Shown here piece by piece: positions 1-8,494 of a stretch of 51,128 nt of DNA. How positions within the stretch are numbered: the first letter of the stretch is position 1; every line of letters starts with the position of its first letter. The position numbers and the translations under genes are program-made. This DNA comes from an uncultured Chlorobiaceae bacterium. Its GTDB lineage: Bacteria > Bacteroidota > Chlorobiia > Chlorobiales > Chlorobiaceae. The stretch is from positions 1-51,128 of the forward strand of contig CAIJWE010000064.1 in the NCBI GenBank assembly GCA_903824295.1, given 5' to 3'. The notes under the pieces were generated by a model, which saw only the letters and a program-made list of their open reading frames with translations, searched no databases and was not told where the DNA came from.

Positions 1-1
1 G

Positions 2-19
2 CGGATGATTCAGGGCTAA
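2..19 (+). CDS. rpmI: Ribosomal protein L35, last codons (partial)
   Basis: Only the last five codons and TAA stop are in the window, reading R-M-I-Q-G in the frame starting at base 2. L35 proteins of green sulfur bacteria end in a basic stretch of this kind (family knowledge from memory), and the next gene is rplT, its usual partner in the infC-rpmI-rplT operon. The call rests mainly on that neighbour; the fragment is too short to stand alone. Confidence 0.45.
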   Translation, partial: RMIQG

Positions 20-45
20 ATTATTAACATTAACTCGACACAACG

Positions 46-144
46 ATGCCTAAAGCAAATAACGCCGTAGCCTCAAAAGCACGGAGAAAAAGAGTACTCA
101 AAAAAGCCAAAGGGTTCTGGGGATCGCCCTCCTCGCATAATTGA
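46..144 (+). pseudogene. rplT: Truncated ribosomal protein L20 (5' end only)
   Basis: The first 27 or so codons match the start of L20, with [16 protein letters not shown] and then KKAKGFWGS, the basic N-terminal tail that contacts 23S rRNA. After the GGA-TCG codons (about base 127) the similarity stops. The normal continuation RGN-ILTV is replaced by P-S-S-H-N and a TGA, leaving 32 residues against about 115 normally. The sequence beyond belongs to a restriction-modification remnant on the other strand, so the gene was cut by insertion, deletion or rearrangement, or the assembly is joined wrongly here. L20 is needed for 50S assembly and represses its own operon in other bacteria, so an intact copy should exist elsewhere in the genome. 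Confidence 0.85.
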
Positions 145-154
145 GAGCAAAAAG

Positions 155-179
155 CATTATCCATTGGCCATTATCCATT
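155..179. repeat. Short direct repeat at the rplT/RM junction
   Basis: CATTATCCATT occurs twice (155-165 and 169-179), separated by GGC, just downstream of the point where rplT is broken. It is seen directly. Simple AT-rich repeats like this are often found at junctions of rearranged DNA, but its role here is unknown. Confidence 0.6.
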
Positions 180-201
180 TTTGACTTTTCTCTATTCCGG
201 T

Positions 202-306
202 TCATTGTTTCCTCCCTCCTGCTTCTTCTCCGACGATTGCATCCGACCCATTCAGAACCATATCGAGCATCTCCTCGAAATGGTTTATAATCGGTTGAAT
301 ACTCAT
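202..306 (-). CDS. Small ORF coupled to the KilA-N gene
   Basis: A 34-residue ORF whose ATG overlaps the TGA stop of the upstream KilA-N gene (ATGA), with GGAG upstream (AAGGAGATTC), so translation would be coupled. It starts MSIQPIINHFEEMLDMV and ends GGRKQ. A diverged second copy of its first 20 or so codons lies within 1390-1475 (SQPVENHFVEMHEMV), which suggests it is a genuine part of the locus that was duplicated together with the preceding gene. No known family was recognised. It may be a truncated remnant, because the second copy continues much further. Confidence 0.4.
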   Translation of the reverse strand: MSIQPIINHFEEMLDMVLNGSDAIVGEEAGGRKQ

Positions 307-1139
307 GACAGAATCTCCTTTCGCTGTATCGCCATCTTGTTCATACTCCGATCATCAAGCAGCAGAGCCATTTGCTGGATAGCTGTCCGATTGAGCTTTT
401 GCAGCCGTTCAGACTGAGTGAGCCCTTCCTGAATAAAATGGGCATTGAGGTTTTCCAGATTGGCCAGGCAAACCAGTTGGGAGACGTTGGCAAAGTCACG
501 AATGTTGCCTTTATCATCTGGATTTTCATCGCGCCACTCTTTGGCGGTTTTTCCGAAGAGAGCCATGTTCAAAATGTCTGCTTCGGATGCGTAAACCAGA
601 TTGACTTGCTCTTTACTCAACTCTTGAGGAATAAGATGCTGCTTGATGGCATCAGTATGAATGCAGTAGTTGATTTTGGTCAGGTTGCGGCGAATATCCC
701 AGCCAAGCTGTTTGAATTCCTCATCTTTCAACCGCTGGAACTCTTTTATGAGGTAAAGTTTAAATTTTGGAGATATCCATGACGCAAATTCAAAGGCAAT
801 ATCTCTGTGAGCATAGGTTCCTCCATAACGACCTGCTTTGGCAACGATACCAATGGAACCTGTTTTTTCTACCCACTGCTTGACTGATAACACAAAACGA
901 TTCAAGCCTGCTTCGTTTTTAATTCCCTCGAATTCGGGGGAATTAAAATGTTCGTTGTAGATCTGCTCCCAGATGCCGATGAACTCTATGGTGTTTTTAT
1001 TTCGAAGCCATTTTTCGATCAATGCAAAACCATTATCGATATCACGAACCATATCTGTCAGGGAGATATAATCCTGCTCATGGTTGACAATGACTGTGAT
1101 TTCACTGCCATCCACATTGATTTTTCGATTCCTGTTCAT
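303..1139 (-). CDS. KilA-N domain (RhuM-like) protein of RM locus
   Basis: 278 residues. Residues 25-130 carry the KilA-N signature: ISLTDMV near the start, then GRYGGTYAHRDIAFEFASW and the SPKFKLYLIKEFQRL helix. KilA-N is a DNA-binding fold first known from phages and large DNA viruses. Proteins of this shape, often annotated RhuM or 'virulence protein', are regular passengers of type I restriction loci, but their role is unsettled. The rest (about 140-278) is helical and unassigned. The start is the ATG preceded by AAAGAGATTCAGCG. It lies downstream of hsdM on the same strand, with a decayed partial copy between them, and its stop overlaps the next small ORF. Confidence 0.75.
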   Translation of the reverse strand: MNRNRKINVDGSEITVIVNHEQDYISLTDMVRDIDNGFALIEKWLRNKNTIEFIGIWEQIYNEHFNSPEFEGIKNEAGLNRFVLSVKQWVEKTGSIGIVAKAGRYGGTYAHRDIAFEFASWISPKFKLYLIKEFQRLKDEEFKQLGWDIRRNLTKINYCIHTDAIKQHLIPQELSKEQVNLVYASEADILNMALFGKTAKEWRDENPDDKGNIRDFANVSQLVCLANLENLNAHFIQEGLTQSERLQKLNRTAIQQMALLLDDRSMNKMAIQRKEILS

Positions 1140-1253
1140 CGCTGAATCTCTTTAACGTAAAATTTTATTGTTCTCTGAACATTGATCTCCGCTGTCGTCG
1201 CCCACCCCTCTTTAAGGTCACAGTCTGTGATCTTAAAAAGGGGTCGTAACATA

Positions 1254-1643
1254 TCAGATTACAATTTGTGATTTCATGTTTTCATACTCATCAAGAAATA
1301 TTTTCCCTTCGGAGTTTTGGGTTGCACTATAAAGGTTGGTAGCCAACTCTGTGCGACCCAAATTGTCGGGAGCAAAGCAGGAAAACGCATAAGATTCCAT
1401 TTTGCGCTCCGCTCCCGACCCAATCGGCACCATCTCGTGCATCTCCACGAAATGGTTTTCAACAGGTTGACTGCTCTTGGCTGAATCTCCTTTCGCTGTG
1501 TTCCCAGTTTCTTCATGCTCCGATCATCGACAAGCAGCGCCATTTGGTGGATGGCAGTCCAATTGATCGCTTGCAACCGCCTCGAATTCGACACGGTTAA
1601 AACCATCGAATTCGATCACCTTTGTCATAACCACTACATTCAT
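1254..1643 (-). pseudogene. Decayed duplicate of KilA-N gene 3' end and small ORF
   Basis: This stretch between hsdM and the intact KilA-N gene is a broken second copy. An ATG at 1643 overlaps the hsdM stop (ATGA) and opens a 39-codon ORF. In another frame the peptide AINWTAIHQMALLVDDRSMK appears, clearly related to LNRTAIQQMALLLDDRSMN at the C-terminus of the intact gene, so at least one frameshift and a large internal deletion occurred. The stop and the ATG of the following small ORF are also lost (ATG changed to AAG), and reading continues as a 64-residue ORF ending at 1254. Nothing suggests a functional product, although the last ORF is open. Confidence 0.7.
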
Positions 1644-3208
1644 CGCTGAATCTCCTTGAGCTTTTCAGCCATCTTCAGGCGCACCTCTGCCAGTTCTTGT
1701 TCCAGCTTGTCAATTTCCGCCTGAACAGCATCAATATCAATCTCCTCTTCCTCTTCAAAGGTATCCACATAGCGAGGGATATTGAGGTTGAAGTCGTTTT
1801 CCTGTATCTCAGTAATGCTGGCAACATGGGCATATTTTTCGACCTCTTTGCCTTCGCTGTAGACCCGCATGATCTTTTCAACCTGTTCTTCGGAAAGAGT
1901 GTTCTGATTCTTGCCCGAAACAAACTCCCGACTGGCATCAACAAAGAGCACCTCCCTGCACGACTCCCTGTGTCCGCCTTTTTCCCTGGAGCGGTCAAAC
2001 ACCAGTATGGCAACCGGAATATTGGTGGTTGGAAAGAGATTACCCGGCAGTCCGATTACCGAATCAAGCAGGTTTTCTTCAATCATTTTCTGGCGGACAC
2101 GCCCTTCAGCAGCTCCCCTGAAAAGCACTCCATGAGGGACAACCACCGCAACACGACCCTCTTTTTCAAGCGCTGTTTCAATCATGTGGCTGATAAAGGC
2201 CCAGTCCCCTTTGCCCTTGGGCGGAACCCCGCGCCAGAAGCGGTTATACTGATCGTTTTCGGCATTTTCCGCGCCCCACTTGTCGAGAGAGAATGGTGGA
2301 TTGGCCACAACACAGTTGAATTTCATCAGGCGGTCATTTTCCACCAGAAGGGGGCTGTTGAGGGTGTCGCACCACTCGATGCGGGCACTGTCGAAACTGT
2401 GAAGAAACATATTCATTCGGCAGAGCGCCCAGGTGCTGCCGTTGGACTCCTGACCGAACAACGCGAAATTACGGTCGCCAACCACTTTGGCCGCCTGTAC
2501 CAGAAGACCTCCTGAACCGCAGGCCGGGTCACAGATGCGGTCACCGGGTTTCGGAGCGGCAAGTTTGGCCACGAGCTCTGTAACTTTAAGCGGGGTAAAA
2601 AACTCTCCGGCCTTTTTGCCTGAATCCGAAGCAAAACGCTCGATCAGGTAGATATAGGTGTTGCCAATGACATCTTCGGAAACAAGGCTTGGCTTCATAT
2701 TCAACTGCGGCTTGTAAAAGTCTTCCAGCAGTTGCTTCAACCGGCGGTTACGATCTTTTGTCTTGCCGAGATTCGCCTCGCTGTTAAAGTCGATATTCCG
2801 GAAAACCCCTTCGAGCTTGGTTTTGTTGGATTCTTCAATGTGATCGAAAACAATATTGATCAGCTCGCCAATATTGGCCGCCGCCCTGCGTTCGTAAAGA
2901 CTGTAGTATGTTGCCGGGAACTCATCAAGAAGCGCCTCTTCGCCAGTCACCCTGTTTTTTTCGGTCAGTCTGATAACCGGAAGAACAAAGCGTTCACGCT
3001 CCATTTTGCGGAGGATTCGGGCATCATCACTGCCGTACTGCTTCTGATACTTTTCGTAATGATCCTGCCAGACGTCCGAGATGTATTTTAAAAAGAGCAT
3101 CACGAGGATGTAGTCTTTGTACTGTGCCGGATCGACAACACCCCGGAAAGTGTCGCACGCTGCCCATGCCGCATTATTGATATCCTTCTGATCGATCTTG
3201 CTGCTCAT
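1640..3208 (-). CDS. hsdM: Type I restriction-modification methyltransferase (M subunit)
   Basis: 522 residues, full length for HsdM. The N-terminal helical domain (VDPAQYKDYILVMLFLKYIS) is followed by the N6-adenine methylase core: FFTPLKVTELV, SAM motif I DPACGSGGLL near residue 228, and catalytic motif IV NPPF near 303. The C-terminus is a Glu/Lys-rich coiled coil that normally contacts HsdS. With an S subunit it methylates adenine in a bipartite site. The half-length hsdS lies 3 bases upstream on the same strand. No hsdR is present, so the locus can at most methylate. The downstream KilA-N genes look transcribed with it. Confidence 0.95.
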   Translation of the reverse strand: MSSKIDQKDINNAAWAACDTFRGVVDPAQYKDYILVMLFLKYISDVWQDHYEKYQKQYGSDDARILRKMERERFVLPVIRLTEKNRVTGEEALLDEFPATYYSLYERRAAANIGELINIVFDHIEESNKTKLEGVFRNIDFNSEANLGKTKDRNRRLKQLLEDFYKPQLNMKPSLVSEDVIGNTYIYLIERFASDSGKKAGEFFTPLKVTELVAKLAAPKPGDRICDPACGSGGLLVQAAKVVGDRNFALFGQESNGSTWALCRMNMFLHSFDSARIEWCDTLNSPLLVENDRLMKFNCVVANPPFSLDKWGAENAENDQYNRFWRGVPPKGKGDWAFISHMIETALEKEGRVAVVVPHGVLFRGAAEGRVRQKMIEENLLDSVIGLPGNLFPTTNIPVAILVFDRSREKGGHRESCREVLFVDASREFVSGKNQNTLSEEQVEKIMRVYSEGKEVEKYAHVASITEIQENDFNLNIPRYVDTFEEEEEIDIDAVQAEIDKLEQELAEVRLKMAEKLKEIQR

Positions 3209-3211
3209 CCG

Positions 3212-3790
3212 TTATTCTCCTTTTGCAAACTGCATTAATACCATTGAAATATAGTGCTTCCGCTTTTCAGCAAGCACACCGAGCAAAGCCTGTTCACGAG
3301 CGGAGAGCGCGGCCAGCTCAACAATATTTTTTTGACACTCCAATGAAGGCAAGAGAACCTCCAGATTTTCAAGTATCTCCTTGCTGATCATCTTTTGGGC
3401 AGTCCCTATCGCCCTGCTTGTCAAAAATACCTGCGCGTCTCGCTGGCTGAGATACCAGTTCAGATACTCCGGTAAAACCCTGTCAGCTCTTGTAATCCTG
3501 ATTCTTATCAAAGGTGAGGCAACAACGGCTTTTCCGGGATCTTCAAGAAGAATCGCGGCATTGCTCACAAGACCACGCGACCGGAAGACAAGATCTCCTT
3601 TACAGGCAAGGTGGTGGCTCTTGACCATATCCATATCAGTCTTAACCAGTTTATCGCACTCCACAGTGTTGTTATCAAGCAAATCTTTCATCTGAATGAC
3701 CGACAATCCACCATCTTTCGATACCTCAAGACGGGATCGGAATGAGTACCCCACTTGTACCGTCGCTATTTCTTTTATCTGAGCAATCAC
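3212..3790 (-). CDS. hsdS: Type I RM specificity subunit, half-length
   Basis: 192 residues with one target-recognition domain and one trailing helix, against about 400 residues and two domains in standard HsdS. Residues 1-150 fit the HsdS fold: ATVQVGYSFRSR at the start, GDLVFRSRG, and YLNWYLSQ, typical of recognition-domain ends. Then comes a coiled helix (KNIVELAALSAREQALLGVL). Half-size S subunits are known to work as dimers recognising symmetric sites, so this need not be a broken gene. The start is GTG, with GGAGG 5 bases upstream. It is the first gene of the minus-strand RM cluster. Confidence 0.85.
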   Translation of the reverse strand: MIAQIKEIATVQVGYSFRSRLEVSKDGGLSVIQMKDLLDNNTVECDKLVKTDMDMVKSHHLACKGDLVFRSRGLVSNAAILLEDPGKAVVASPLIRIRITRADRVLPEYLNWYLSQRDAQVFLTSRAIGTAQKMISKEILENLEVLLPSLECQKNIVELAALSAREQALLGVLAEKRKHYISMVLMQFAKGE

Positions 3791-3929
3791 AAACCCTCCA
3801 CAATCCTTTAAAATGTCATTCCTGTAAAAGCAGCAATTTTACAGACAACAACAAGCGCTTTTCGCAAAAACGCCGTTCCAGCATTTCAATTTGGCGTCTC
3901 AAATACTTTTTAACATTCATGTTTTCCCT

Positions 3930-4097
3930 GAGGCGTTGCGCCTTATGATGGAGCGGGACTCTCTTCGCAAAGAAAGGCTTGATCAGGTACAGATGGATAT
4001 TCAGTACGGGATAGAGAGTGGCACTGCCGCCGCCTGGAATGCTGAAGAGATAGAGATCCGTGTCCGAAAAAGAAGAGTCGCGACAAAAGCTGGTTAA
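3930..4097 (+). pseudogene. ParD-type antitoxin fragment
   Basis: The reading frame from about 3930 encodes EALRLMMERD, then a charged helix and GIESGTAAAWNAEEI with a basic tail. This is the C-terminal, toxin-wrapping half of CC2985/ParD-type antitoxins, whose usual form is REALRL-EER-...-GIDSG-...-EEIKARGRAR. The N-terminal ribbon-helix-helix DNA-binding part (about 35 residues) is missing: the upstream in-frame sequence does not resemble it. No ParE toxin was found downstream. It is an orphan remnant next to the RM cluster, consistent with a decaying accessory region. Short translation from internal ATGs is possible but unlikely to matter. Confidence 0.6.
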
Positions 4098-4260
4098 GGA
4101 GAGTCAAGATCCGCCAATGAGCTGATGTTACAATTTCGGGGGATGCCCTTCGCAGGAAGTCCTACTGTTCATCAGGAATAGTGGAAACGTCGAAAAAGAT
4201 GGTAAATAGTGTATAGTAATTGAGCCTTTTTGGTGACAACCCATTTCCGATTTTATCATC

Positions 4261-5193
4261 ATGCTTCAAATGAAACAAGCTGCTCTCAAGGCTCTTGAAA
4301 ACCTTCGCTCCAGAGGAGAGATTCCTTTTGTCTGGCAAAGTATGGAGGAGCTTGAACGCAAAACAAATGACTTTGTATCGCGCTTTCTTGATGAACGACT
4401 CAGGGTATCAAAAGAGTTGGGTGGAGGCTTTTTTTTGACTGAATTGCTCGACCGGCTGATGCGTACCTCCGAGAGTGAGCGTATGGACAACAGGGAACTT
4501 CCCGAGATCGAAAAGCTGGAGCTGGTGAAGGCGCTTGACCGGCAGAACGAGATGTTGCACCTCTACCCCCGATATGTTGCCATGCTGTTATCACTGCTTG
4601 ATGAAGCGGCAAAAGGAGGAGTACCGGAGGCGAGAATACTGGAACTGGCATGCGGATCAGGAGGGCTGGCGATGGCGCTGGCTGAAGAGGTGCAGCGAAA
4701 AAATCTGCAGGTCTCTGTTACCGGTTCAGATATCGTCCCGATATTTATTGAGGAGGGCAATCGTCTGGCGGCAGAAAAAAAACTCCCTCTCCGTTTCCGG
4801 CGTCTCAATGCTTATGATCTGTCAGAGTTTTCTGCCGGATCATTTGAGCTTATGGTGCTCTCTCAAAGCCTCCACCATTTCACCCCCGGTCAACTTGCCG
4901 TCATGATTGCCCAGTCAGCAAAATATACCACAACCGCCTTTGTTGGCATTGATGGATATCGGAGCATTCTGCTTGCAGGCGGAGTTCCGCTGGTAGCAAG
5001 CATGCAGGGTATCGCTTCATTTGCTCTGGACGGCTTTACTTCTGCCCGAAAATTCTACAGCGAAGTGGAACTTGATATCATTGCGGAGATTGCAACGGGC
5101 AAACGAGATCATCGTGTAACCTCGTCATGGCCATTGACTGTTCTTACGATTCGCTTTGATGGCGTAAAACCCTCTGCCCCTCAATTTTCATGA
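4261..5193 (+). CDS. Class I SAM-dependent methyltransferase
   Basis: 310 residues. A helical N-terminal region (1-110) precedes a Rossmann methyltransferase domain: motif I ELACGSGGLAMALAEE near residue 128, an acidic SAM-ribose position in TGSDIVP, and the post-motif LSQSLHHF near 200, typical of methyltransferase family 11/25 proteins. The His-His pair after motif IV is common in small-molecule methylases. The substrate cannot be told from sequence. It stands alone on the plus strand between the decayed RM region and the exosortase operon, with about 400 bases to the next gene, so no operon link is seen. Confidence 0.8.
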   Translation: MLQMKQAALKALENLRSRGEIPFVWQSMEELERKTNDFVSRFLDERLRVSKELGGGFFLTELLDRLMRTSESERMDNRELPEIEKLELVKALDRQNEMLHLYPRYVAMLLSLLDEAAKGGVPEARILELACGSGGLAMALAEEVQRKNLQVSVTGSDIVPIFIEEGNRLAAEKKLPLRFRRLNAYDLSEFSAGSFELMVLSQSLHHFTPGQLAVMIAQSAKYTTTAFVGIDGYRSILLAGGVPLVASMQGIASFALDGFTSARKFYSEVELDIIAEIATGKRDHRVTSSWPLTVLTIRFDGVKPSAPQFS

Positions 5194-5519
5194 CAGGCTC
5201 TTCAAGAAAAAATAAAAACCCGTTGCTACCCTCATGCAAAAAATGACACACTGCGCGAACGATTACTTTGTAAAAAAAATGGATTTCCGTTACACCCCAA
5301 ACAACAGTTTTCAACGCATTATCGATTTGTCTCATCTCATCATTGAGCAATTCACCCCAAACAGTAACCAATCTGAAGCGATGATCTGTCCGGCGGGCTT
5401 GGAGCGTTACTAAGCGAGTAAGGAAATTTTAGACTGCTTTTTTGCTGCATACTCTTCACATAAAAAAGCAGTACCTCCGATATAGATTGTCGTGCAGATG
5501 GAATTTTTTGTTATTAAAC
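5194..5519. other. Gene-poor stretch before the exosortase operon
   Basis: No convincing gene. A 59-codon ORF (5234-5413, plus) is open but has no ribosome-binding site and no recognisable family. A minus-strand ORF (5144-5371) overlaps the end of the methyltransferase. The clear structure here is a perfect 11-bp inverted repeat, listed separately. The stretch may be the eroded remains of a lost gene. Confidence 0.5.
5433..5472. repeat. Perfect 11-bp inverted repeat upstream of exosortase operon
   Basis: ACTGCTTTTTT (5433-5443) and AAAAAAGCAGT (5462-5472) are exact reverse complements around an 18-base loop. The A/T runs are on the loop side, so this is not the usual GC-stem-plus-U-run terminator. 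It may be a protein-binding operator or an RNA hairpin before the PEP-CTERM gene promoter. Confidence 0.7.
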
Positions 5520-5548
5520 TTGATTCATACAAGAAAATACGTTAAAGT
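5520..5548 (+). promoter_or_regulatory. Candidate sigma-70-type promoter of exosortase operon
   Basis: TTGATT (5520-5525), a 17-base spacer and TAAAGT (5543-5548) sit about 55 bases before the ATG of the PEP-CTERM gene, each with 4 of 6 matches to consensus or better. Position and spacing fit; no transcript evidence is available. Confidence 0.4.
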
Positions 5549-5601
5549 TATTGAAGGGTTTTGCCCATATAGTTTGCGAGGCACAAAAAACGGAAGGAAA
5601 T

Positions 5602-6024
5602 ATGAAGAAGGTTATCTATAGATTACTCGGAGCCGCAATGGCCTCATGGGTGGTGAGTGGAACTGTTCTGGCTGATGATATTGCGACAATTCCTCAAAGT
5701 CAGGCACCGTCAGTCAATGTTGGAAGTGGTGCAAATATTGGGGGATCCGCAAATACGGTATCTGGTACAGGTAGCGGGGCCGGAGGTCCTGGTGACGGGC
5801 AGGGGCCGGGCAATGGAGCTGGACAGGGAATCGGGCGAGGGCCATCGGGGAGCAACGAAGGAGGTTCGACTGATGGTCAGTCGACGCTCGTTGAATCTTC
5901 CGATATGGACGCATCACCAGCCCCGGAGCCGGCAACGTTAGTGCTTTTGGGCATTGGTGGAGCTCTTTTGTTGGCATACGGCCTGAAGAAAAGAGCTGCC
6001 AGAGCGTCAAAGCGAATGATATGA
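5602..6024 (+). CDS. Gly-rich PEP-CTERM surface protein
   Basis: 140 residues. A signal peptide (MKKVIYRLLGAAMASW, then VVSGTVLA) is followed by a low-complexity Gly/Ser/Asn/Pro region (about 25-95) with many G-x-G steps. The end is a textbook PEP-CTERM sorting signal: PEPATLVLLG, a hydrophobic helix, then the basic cluster LKKRAARASKR. Exosortases cut at or near the PEP motif and transfer the protein out of the membrane. The ATG at 5602 was chosen because GGAAGGAAA precedes it directly and the signal peptide begins there; the upstream in-frame TTG lacks both. The stop overlaps the ATG of the next gene (ATGA). It is likely the dedicated substrate of the exosortase encoded 900 bases downstream. 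Confidence 0.88.
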   Translation: MKKVIYRLLGAAMASWVVSGTVLADDIATIPQSQAPSVNVGSGANIGGSANTVSGTGSGAGGPGDGQGPGNGAGQGIGRGPSGSNEGGSTDGQSTLVESSDMDASPAPEPATLVLLGIGGALLLAYGLKKRAARASKRMI

Positions 6025-6911
6025 AATCATTGTCGGCGACCTGCCTTTTTGTGTTAGCCCTTGCCGGGTGCTCCCCGAATAATGGGGGGGGTGGTGATGG
6101 GCGAGTGACTGCGGTGGTGAACGGCGTTGAGATAACACGACGTGAGGTTGATTTTTTGTGTCGTCGCCCGGCTCTCCGCGATAGTGATGGGGTGGCCGAG
6201 AGGCAACGAGTCCTTTCTCTTCTGGTTCGCAAGGAGCTGCTTGCACAACATGCTTTGGCGTTGAAGCTGGAGAATTCTCCGGATTTCATTGTAGCAATGT
6301 ATGAAGCCCGCCGCAATGTGCTTGCAGGAATGGCTGAGCGACATATTGCAGCACAGAGCGAAAAAGTATTACCTGAATCTGTCGAAAAAATTGTCGCGGC
6401 TAATCCCCGTTTTTTTTCGCAAAGAAAACTTCTTGTGTATGACCAGGTGGTGATCCCCAGTGTTGATGAACCATTGCTCACATCCCTGAATAACGACGCA
6501 GAGAGTGGCGCCTCGCTGGAACAACTGCTCAACAGGATCAATGCAAAAAAGATCCCCTTTCGTCGTACTATGCAGGCGTTGACAACCGATCAGATTGACC
6601 CTGGTATTTTCAGTGTCTTGAGCACATCGCGTTTGAAAAAGCCCCGGATTGTCCGCATTGAGACAAAGTTTTCAATGATTCTGGTGTTGCGGGCAACCGT
6701 GCCAATGCCGCTTGACGGCGATGCTGCCATTCAGGCCGCCGCCGACATGCTGAATGAGCAACAGCGCAAAATGGAGGTTTCGAAAACTCTGACCAAAGCG
6801 CTTGATTCAGCAAAAATCACCTTTTTCGGAGAGTTCGCTTCGGACAAGGGTGGAAAAAAATTGCCCGTAACGTCGTTTGATCTGCCGCCTCTTCCTTTAC
6901 TGCAACCATAA
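6021..6911 (+). CDS. EpsD-like lipoprotein peptidyl-prolyl isomerase
   Basis: 296 residues. A lipoprotein signal ends in lipobox LAGC (cysteine at about 17). A SurA-N-like helical chaperone region follows (VNGVEITRREVDFLC, then ...LLVRKELLAQHALALKLENS), then a weaker region in the parvulin position and a helical tail. This architecture matches the EpsD family of periplasmic folding factors that accompany exosortase and exopolysaccharide loci. It is translationally coupled to the PEP-CTERM gene (ATGA overlap) and 14 bases before the exosortase gene. It probably holds the PEP-CTERM protein in a sortable state. The isomerase active site is not clearly recognisable, so it may be chaperone only. 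Confidence 0.75.
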   Translation: MKSLSATCLFVLALAGCSPNNGGGGDGRVTAVVNGVEITRREVDFLCRRPALRDSDGVAERQRVLSLLVRKELLAQHALALKLENSPDFIVAMYEARRNVLAGMAERHIAAQSEKVLPESVEKIVAANPRFFSQRKLLVYDQVVIPSVDEPLLTSLNNDAESGASLEQLLNRINAKKIPFRRTMQALTTDQIDPGIFSVLSTSRLKKPRIVRIETKFSMILVLRATVPMPLDGDAAIQAAADMLNEQQRKMEVSKTLTKALDSAKITFFGEFASDKGGKKLPVTSFDLPPLPLLQP

Positions 6912-6925
6912 CCCGTTTTGCACCC

Positions 6926-7804
6926 ATGACACTCAAACCGCAGGCATCGTGGTTCCCCTGGGTACTTTTCAGCCTGCTCTTCTCTTATTCTGTGGGAAGG
7001 TATCTGCTCCTGTATCCACCATTTCCCGGAAAAAGCGATCAGGCACTCCTCTACGCAGGGATACTCTTCGCATTATGGTCGGAGCGCAAAGCGGTTGCGG
7101 CATCGTTGCTTCGAATGGAGACCGGCAATCTCATATTCGGTACGGCACTTGTCGCTGTTGGTTGCCTGCTCTATGCCATTGGTCGTTTCTACCTCTCAGC
7201 AACCGTCGATGTCTGGAGCCTTTTTCTTATAGCCGCCGGATTGGTGGCGGCGCTTGCTCCGCCTGACCATTTGCGCTCTGCATACTTTATCGCCTTTGCC
7301 GGTACGGTGATTGTGCTTATCGGATGGGCGGCGCCAAACATTCTCTCTTCTGAACTTTCGCTCGCCATTGCATCGGTCAGTGCGATGGTGTTAAGTGCAA
7401 CAACCCTTCCTGTGGTCGCCAACGGCGTCATTCTCTTTTTTGGCCCGTACAGTGCCGAAATTACGAAGGCATGCTCAGGCATGAATTCCATTTTTTCTTT
7501 AACGGCGCTTTTTGTCATTTACCTGAGGGCAGGTTCCCGGCGAACTGCATGGCACATTGCGTTGCTGGTTGCCTATCTCATTCCTGTTGCCGTAATGACC
7601 AATTTTGCCCGGGTAATATTGCTTGTACTGGCAACCTGGTACATCGGCGACGGTTTTGCTCAGGGGTTGTTCCATGAAATTGCAGGAATTGGCTCCTTTG
7701 TTGCAGCTCTCTTCATGCTCTCGCTTGTCGATCACCTCCTGTTCCTCTCCTCTTCCTGCAGAAAAAATCAAAAACGTCTACCGTATGCGGATAAAAAGGC
7801 ATAG
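6926..7804 (+). CDS. xrt: Exosortase (membrane sorting transpeptidase)
   Basis: 292 residues, about eight hydrophobic segments. The three invariant exosortase residues are all present: Cys183 in ACSGMNS, Arg229 in NFARVILL and His250 in FHEIAG. Archaeosortases and exosortases use this Cys/Arg/His set to cleave PEP-CTERM-type tails and relocate the protein. The enzyme is not fused to EpsI, which is encoded by the next gene, overlapping by 20 bases. The exosortase subclass cannot be told by eye. The co-located PEP-CTERM gene and the lack of polysaccharide genes suggest a dedicated system. Confidence 0.92.
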   Translation: MTLKPQASWFPWVLFSLLFSYSVGRYLLLYPPFPGKSDQALLYAGILFALWSERKAVAASLLRMETGNLIFGTALVAVGCLLYAIGRFYLSATVDVWSLFLIAAGLVAALAPPDHLRSAYFIAFAGTVIVLIGWAAPNILSSELSLAIASVSAMVLSATTLPVVANGVILFFGPYSAEITKACSGMNSIFSLTALFVIYLRAGSRRTAWHIALLVAYLIPVAVMTNFARVILLVLATWYIGDGFAQGLFHEIAGIGSFVAALFMLSLVDHLLFLSSSCRKNQKRLPYADKKA

Positions 7805-8471
7805 CGTGATCTCTCTCGCTCTGGGATTCCTGATTTTGTGCTCGCTGATGCTGGTTGAGTCGAGGGTGAATCTGCAGGTTCAAGGTTCTAAACCAGATCT
7901 TGAACGGCTGGTGAGCCTGCATCCCCGTGACTGGAAACTGGTTGAAGGTCCACAAGTACGGTTAGGGGTAACCGAATCCGTTTTGGACCAATACGATATT
8001 ATTGCTTCAAGCCGCTATCAGCATACCGATGGACGGAGGGTGCTGGTGGTTATGACATGGAGCGGTGACGGGTTCCGACACCAGGGGCATGATCAGCAGG
8101 TGTGCTATAGCGCCAACGGATTTACGGTCAATTCGTCGCATTCTGTTTCGATCCCGATCGGTGACGACAGCATTGAGGCGATGGCTTTTACCGGCAGCAA
8201 GCCAACCCAGAAAGAAGATGTGCTCTACTGGAAAGTGACTGATGGAATAAGAGAGAGAGGCATCGACAGCAGAGGAACCTTGCTTCATCGACTCCAGCGA
8301 CTGATCTATTTGCCCGATTTATTTCGGGGGAAGTTCCCCGACAACCTGATGGTAAGGGTTTCAAGCGTAAGGGAACGGGATGGCCAACCCGCAACGGCCC
8401 ATATCGAGTATGTCAGGAAGTGGCTCGGAGCAATTGCTCCGGTTGATCGCGCACGAATCATGGGTCGGTGA
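7785..8471 (+). CDS. epsI: EpsI family exosortase-associated protein
   Basis: 228 residues. A single N-terminal membrane anchor (ISLALGFLILCSLMLVESRV) precedes an extracytoplasmic domain (about 35-228) with the EpsI pattern: a DWKLVEG stretch near the start, H/Q residues in the middle (RHQGHDQQVCYSANGF), and a C-terminal RVSS region. EpsI proteins occur either fused to exosortases or as separate partners; their exact job is unknown. The start ATG at 7785 was chosen because the anchor follows immediately; an upstream in-frame extension would lie inside the exosortase gene. Last gene of the four-gene operon. Confidence 0.85.
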   Translation: MRIKRHSVISLALGFLILCSLMLVESRVNLQVQGSKPDLERLVSLHPRDWKLVEGPQVRLGVTESVLDQYDIIASSRYQHTDGRRVLVVMTWSGDGFRHQGHDQQVCYSANGFTVNSSHSVSIPIGDDSIEAMAFTGSKPTQKEDVLYWKVTDGIRERGIDSRGTLLHRLQRLIYLPDLFRGKFPDNLMVRVSSVRERDGQPATAHIEYVRKWLGAIAPVDRARIMGR

Positions 8472-8494
8472 CCTCCCGTGACGAAGAGGGCGGG

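What the first reader, a model, noticed from the sequence alone, without database searches (positions are those of the whole stretch)
5602..8471. Self-contained exosortase module with its own substrate and folding factor
Four overlapping or closely spaced genes encode one Gly-rich PEP-CTERM protein, an EpsD-like lipoprotein, the exosortase and EpsI, with no glycosyltransferase or EPS gene near. Most exosortases serve many scattered substrates alongside polysaccharide genes. A single co-transcribed substrate suggests a dedicated surface-assembly device, perhaps building a Gly-rich sheath or extracellular filament. It is the best candidate in the window for an undescribed system.
Basis: partly seen in the sequence, partly recalled or inferred. 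Interest (0 to 1): 0.62.

Follow-up and report, generated by a model that had tools for sequence, protein, structure and literature searches.

The report
Dedicated exosortase module, glycine-rich substrate
A green sulfur bacterium carries a compact four-gene cassette in which a membrane sorting enzyme (exosortase) is packaged with its own single small glycine-rich target and two helper proteins; such one-enzyme, one-target pairs are a known category, but this stripped-down version has not been described to my knowledge.

Summary
5602-8471 encodes a Gly-rich PEP-CTERM protein, an EpsD lipoprotein, an exosortase with an intact Cys/Arg/His triad, and EpsI, in tight overlap with no polysaccharide genes nearby. 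The host is a Chlorobium-type green sulfur bacterium (2.85 Mb assembly, 99.98% complete). Two independent profiles find only two genuine PEP-CTERM proteins in the genome. Each lies directly beside one of its two exosortases, and their sorting tails differ in motif. But 'dedicated' sorting systems are a named category (PMC3237569), similar PEP/EpsD/exosortase/EpsI modules recur across the family, and many relatives have 5-15 scattered PEP-CTERM proteins alongside an exosortase. What is distinctive is a five-genome exosortase clade (support 97/90) that uniquely has the Gly-rich substrate, a clade-specific SPAPEP tail, no EPS neighbours, and an EpsD that lost its four-helix membrane domain (three genomes) or is missing from the module (two). 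The roughly 40-residue core, with Gly at every second position ten times in a row, is the most constrained part measured in the operon (dN/dS 0.03-0.11). Verdict: a new variant of a known kind. The sheath or filament role is untested.

The parts
5602..6024 (+). PEP-CTERM substrate, 140 aa: Sec signal peptide (1-24), short N region, Gly-rich core, linker, sorting tail
   Evidence: full-length-type homologues only in G055, G074, G037, G080
5719..5841 (+). Conserved Gly-rich core (residues 40-80); residues 62-80 have Gly at every second position, 10 in a row
   Evidence: dN/dS 0.03-0.11 against 0.35-1.17 in the linker; 8-16 of 20000 composition shuffles reach a run of 10
5914..6021 (+). Sorting tail SPAPEPATLVLLGIGGALLLAYGLKKRAARASKRMI: PEP motif, hydrophobic helix, basic end
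   Evidence: TIGR02595 and PF07589 over cut-off; A1 profile E = 8.1e-16
6021..6911 (+). EpsD: lipoprotein (lipobox LALAGC, Cys17), SurA/PrsA/PEB4-like chaperone with parvulin-like domain (about 136-228); lacks the four-helix C-terminal membrane domain of other family EpsDs
   Evidence: TIGR02925 over cut-off; AF2 model pLDDT 78; Foldseek to PEB4/HP0175/SurA/PrsA; hydropathy
6926..7804 (+). Exosortase; catalytic-type residues Cys183 (7472-7474), Arg229 (7610-7612), His250 (7673-7675) in motifs C-S-G, N-F-A-R, H-E-I-A-G
   Evidence: PF09721 99.7 bits, TIGR04178 51.3 bits; residues invariant in 15 homologues
7785..8471 (+). EpsI (DUF3485): one N-terminal membrane helix plus periplasmic alpha/beta domain; invariant His102 and Cys107-Tyr108 (full-length numbering)
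   Evidence: TIGR02914 47.2 > 42.8; invariant in 27 homologues; AF2 pTM 0.75

Best explanation
This is a dedicated exosortase/PEP-CTERM system: one enzyme with one substrate of its own. Steps inferred from family knowledge: the Gly-rich protein is exported by Sec and held in the inner membrane by its C-terminal helix; the EpsD lipoprotein acts as a periplasmic holdase (SurA/PrsA type); the exosortase (Cys183/Arg229/His250), assisted by EpsI, cuts near the PEP motif and passes the mature peptide of about 80 residues to an unknown acceptor bound for the cell surface. Steps shown here: the gene set, the intact triad, the one-to-one count in the genome, the enzyme-specific tails, and strong selection on the Gly-alternating core. 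It is a reduced, EPS-free clade of a family-wide module, sitting in a variable island next to fadD and the biotin operon.
For: Only two PEP-CTERM proteins and two exosortases in a 99.98% complete genome, paired by adjacency. Also 3:3 in G055, 1:1 in G074 and G053. Tails differ by enzyme type: mostly PEP[AP]..LLG.GG for this type, APEPST...FLL without GG for the C4 type; the Gly clade has its own SPAPEP form. The exosortase tree groups the five Gly-substrate modules (97/90), and Gly-type substrates occur only in those five. EpsD lacks the four-helix domain in this clade only. Purifying selection on all four genes.
Against: No experiment shows cleavage or attachment. The exosortase is below every named-subtype cut-off (XrtV 132 of 313, XrtB 98 of 275) and below the TIGR02602 cut-off (72.6 of 105.55). 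Non-canonical substrates without a recognisable tail would be missed. The Gly clade is a single lineage, so the linked changes are one evolutionary event, not independent replicates. The two enzymes could cross-process each other's substrates.
Confidence: 0.75

Rival explanations
1. The module is a remnant of an ordinary EPS-linked exosortase system: the lineage lost its other substrates and EPS neighbours, and what remains still adds a protein to an exopolysaccharide made elsewhere in the genome.
For: Close relatives have many scattered PEP-CTERM proteins with the same enzyme type (G063 10, G072 10, G033 8), and some of their modules lie beside sugar-transferase, ATP-grasp and AT3/SGNH genes. 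The host has three Wza-type exporters.
Against: The substrate is a different family from the roughly 250-aa substrates of relatives and is under strong selection in its core; the module is intact and maintained, with matched changes in EpsD and tail.
Confidence: 0.35
2. The two exosortases share substrates: the C4 enzyme, which in relatives lies next to glycosyltransferase-type genes, is the main enzyme and the window copy is redundant.
For: Both enzymes are present with intact motifs; PEP motifs are similar.
Against: Module-adjacent tails fall into two motif classes that follow the enzyme type; the window-type enzyme is the only exosortase found in G074 (87% complete).
Confidence: 0.1
3. A mobile cargo gene set in a defence-type island, possibly carried as an accessory with no fixed role.
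For: The fadD 3' side is variable: G051 and G081 run straight into another gene, and G058, G068, G079, G052 and G063 carry other cargo; restriction-modification and AAA/HNH genes lie beside it.
Against: Low dN/dS over three lineages and conserved gene order argue for a maintained function.
Confidence: 0.1

Closest known systems
XrtA/EpsH-type PEP-CTERM systems (Haft 2006, PMC1569441)
   Same: Same enzyme superfamily, triad motifs, PEP-CTERM tail, EpsI partner
   Different: Those have a median of eight substrates, usually as single-gene operons, with the enzyme nearly always inside EPS clusters; here one co-operonic substrate and no EPS genes
Exosortases V and B (NCBIfam NF035943, TIGR03113) with EpsI types V and B
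   Same: Best-scoring named subtypes for the enzyme (132 and 98 bits) and EpsI (71 and 84 bits)
   Different: All below the curated cut-offs (313, 275, 228, 220), so it is not a member of either as defined
Dedicated sorting systems, e.g. single-target rhombosortase/GlyGly-CTERM pairs (PMC3237569)
   Same: One enzyme, one target, adjacent genes; adjacency is seen when targets are few
   Different: Unrelated protease; here two dedicated exosortase modules coexist with different tails
PEP-EpsD-Xrt-EpsI modules of other Chlorobiaceae (e.g. L044, L049, L050, L053, L062)
   Same: Same four genes and order
   Different: Substrates are 232-271 aa without a Gly-rich core; EpsD carries four extra C-terminal membrane helices; EPS-type genes lie next to some

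Membership tests
Exosortase (EpsH superfamily) | Family profile over curated cut-off | tested here: met
   PF09721 99.7 > 25.7, TIGR04178 51.3 > 23; the stricter TIGR02602 is not met (72.6 < 105.55)
Exosortase (EpsH superfamily) | Cys-x-Gly, Asn-x-x-Arg, His-x-x-x-Gly motifs (PMC1569441) | tested here: met
   CSG, NFAR, HEIAG; Cys183, Asn226, Arg229, His250 invariant in 15 homologues
Exosortase (EpsH superfamily) | About eight membrane helices | tested here: inconclusive
   Simple hydropathy scan gives six strong segments
Exosortase V or B subtype | Score over the subtype cut-off | tested here: not met
   132 of 313 and 98 of 275
PEP-CTERM protein | C-terminal PEP motif, helix, basic end, over profile cut-off; N-terminal signal peptide | tested here: met
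   TIGR02595 21.9 > 16, PF07589 21.6 > 20.7; signal peptide read from the sequence, no predictor run
EpsD family | TIGR02925 over cut-off, SurA-like chaperone fold | tested here: met
   152.4 > 108.9; Foldseek to PEB4/SurA/PrsA at E down to 2e-9
EpsD family | Active prolyl isomerase | not testable with these tools
   Parvulin-like topology predicted but no Pfam rotamase model matches
EpsI family | TIGR02914 over cut-off | tested here: met
   47.2 > 42.8; B and V types not met
Dedicated sorting system (PMC3237569) | Sorting enzyme paired with a single target in the genome | tested here: met
   Two enzymes, two targets, each pair adjacent; a strict single-pair reading fails because there are two pairs
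EPS-associated exosortase system | Enzyme among polysaccharide genes | tested here: not met
   No such genes seen near the module; neighbours are fadD/bio and restriction-modification genes
Any exosortase system | Tail cleavage and transfer to an acceptor | not testable with these tools
   Needs mass spectrometry

The most novel reading that the evidence does not exclude
A minimal exosortase device evolved to display one silk-like peptide: ten strictly alternating glycines giving an all-glycine face, attached covalently at the surface (for instance to organise a coat or hold extracellular sulfur globules), with EpsI acting as a chaperone for the substrate's C-terminal helix, as the weak fold resemblance to the transmembrane-domain chaperones SciW and EagT6 hints.
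Probability: 0.12. Interest if true: 0.65.

Novelty: new variant of a known kind. Interest (0 to 1): 0.36.

Why it matters
The acceptor and the chemistry of exosortases are still unclear, and most hosts have many substrates, which blurs every deletion experiment. A four-gene operon with one roughly 80-residue mature product, in genomes where enzyme and target are one to one, is close to the smallest natural test case: one deletion, one product, one mass spectrum. The matched changes in substrate, tail, EpsD and genomic setting within one clade also suggest that EpsD and tail sequence are tuned to the substrate, which tail swaps between the two modules of this genome could test directly.

Tried and rejected
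Extra TIGR02595 hits on C51, C59 and C37 were rejected: C51 is antisense to an SMC-type gene, C59 lies in an 82-aa frame beside a recN-type gene, and C37 is a 34-aa frame opposite a von Willebrand-type protein. The upstream methyltransferase (4261-5193) as part of the module: rejected, because it is absent from the orthologous locus L057. Promoter and terminator scans were at shuffle level and the upstream region shows no clear conserved element. The Gly core against solved structures: nothing (E 4.7). The exosortase on plasmids: only distant XrtB/XrtV-like hits at 31-40%. EpsI against solved sequences: nothing credible. The sulfur-globule literature looked at gave no PEP-CTERM link. The key paper on dedicated exosortases (PMC3256604) is not held.

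Full report
Observation. The substrate stop and the EpsD start overlap by 4 nt, EpsD and the exosortase are 14 nt apart, and exosortase and EpsI overlap by 20 nt (EpsI starts at 7785, read). The exosortase has the three motif pairs that define the family in PMC1569441. Upstream are a methyltransferase, HsdS, HsdM and a KilA-N protein; downstream are fadD and the bio genes; the rest of the contig looks like housekeeping genes by inspection.

Host. The window is a whole contig of G000, a 2.85 Mb assembly. Named relatives of the exosortase are Chlorobiaceae, mainly metagenome-assembled genomes, with Chlorobium and Chlorobaculum among them; matches outside the family are distant (29-41%; Methylococcaceae, Gallionellaceae, other Betaproteobacteria).

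Dedication. PF09721 finds two exosortases, window and C4. TIGR02595 finds two credible PEP-CTERM proteins plus weak hits in or opposite coding genes. A more sensitive profile of 22 family tails finds exactly the same two at E <= 0.05, with E of 8e-16 and 3e-14; that profile includes the two tails themselves, so it is informative about the absence of others rather than about these two. Each is the first gene of an exosortase module. The C4 module is PEP-CTERM (relatives carry DUF4114), a TPR protein, exosortase, a 162-aa membrane protein and an EpsI-like protein. Its proteins are 72-84% identical to those in G055, close to the window module's 63-84%, so it fits the same organism. Across the family 27 of 86 genomes have an exosortase. 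Few-substrate genomes mostly keep the target next to the enzyme; many-substrate genomes have 5-15 mostly scattered ones, the pattern that PMC3237569 reported for rhombosortase.

The Gly clade. The exosortase tree puts the window with G055 and G074 (100/98) and then G037 and G080 (97/90). These are exactly the genomes with the Gly-type substrate. Three have a 296-aa EpsD without the C-terminal four-helix domain present in the other EpsDs examined (444-502 aa; one, L047, cut by a contig end), and two have no EpsD in the module. None has an EPS-type neighbour among those annotated, unlike several other modules of the same enzyme type. Tails in this clade read SPAPEP followed by VLLG and GG, while other tails of this enzyme type mostly read PEPAS, and C4-type tails read APEPST with FLL and no GG.

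Substrate. Between the window, G055 and G074 the core has dN/dS 0.03-0.11, lower than EpsD (0.22-0.28), the exosortase (0.14-0.21) or EpsI (0.13-0.22), whereas the linker reaches 0.35-1.17. These regions are short, so the values are rough. Glycine stands at every second position ten times in a row; composition shuffles reach that in 8-16 of 20000. In G037 and G080 a second copy keeps the tail but only part of the core or almost none, and the first copy in G037 is frameshifted.

Helpers. EpsD models as a SurA/PrsA/PEB4-type chaperone. No Pfam rotamase model matches, so isomerase activity is doubtful. EpsI models well (pTM 0.75); its best structural neighbours are SciW, Apa, PsbP and DcrB, none significant (E about 0.02). 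That is a lead only.

Location. The 3' side of fadD is a variable island: two relatives have a direct junction with another gene and others carry different cargo.

Judgement. Membership in the exosortase superfamily, PEP-CTERM, EpsD and EpsI families is supported; membership in a named exosortase subtype is not. Function at the surface is inferred. The finding is real and somewhat unusual but belongs to a known category, hence an interest of 0.36.

Noticed in passing
Genomes G013, G070, G008, G009, G018: 9 to 21 PEP-CTERM tails but no exosortase by PF09721 or TIGR04178, in assemblies up to 99% complete. This contradicts the statement in PMC3237569 that all species with PEP-CTERM have an exosortase and extends the Chlorobium tepidum puzzle noted in PMC1569441. 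Either an unrecognised enzyme or relict tails.
   Followed up: partly
L008 (contig C4), 1451-6135: Second exosortase module of the same genome: PEP-CTERM, 647-aa TPR protein, exosortase, 162-aa membrane protein, EpsI-like; conserved in six other loci (L067-L072), beside AT3 and WecG-type genes in L070.
   Followed up: partly
window 7785-8471: EpsI has invariant His102 and Cys107-Tyr108 in 27 homologues and a predicted fold weakly resembling SciW/EagT6/DcrB/PsbP.
   Followed up: partly
L058 8299-9130 and L059 9000-10179: Tandem Gly-substrate genes; the second copy keeps signal peptide and tail but little of the mature core, and the first copy in L058 is frameshifted.
   Followed up: partly
window 1-8490, 3' side of fadD: Variable island next to the biotin operon with different cargo in relatives.
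   Followed up: partly
window 1640-3790: HsdM and a short 192-aa HsdS (half-size specificity subunit) near the contig end; no HsdR seen in the part of the window examined.
   Followed up: no
L042 4573-9002: Tandem duplication of the PEP-CTERM plus EpsD pair ahead of one exosortase.
   Followed up: no
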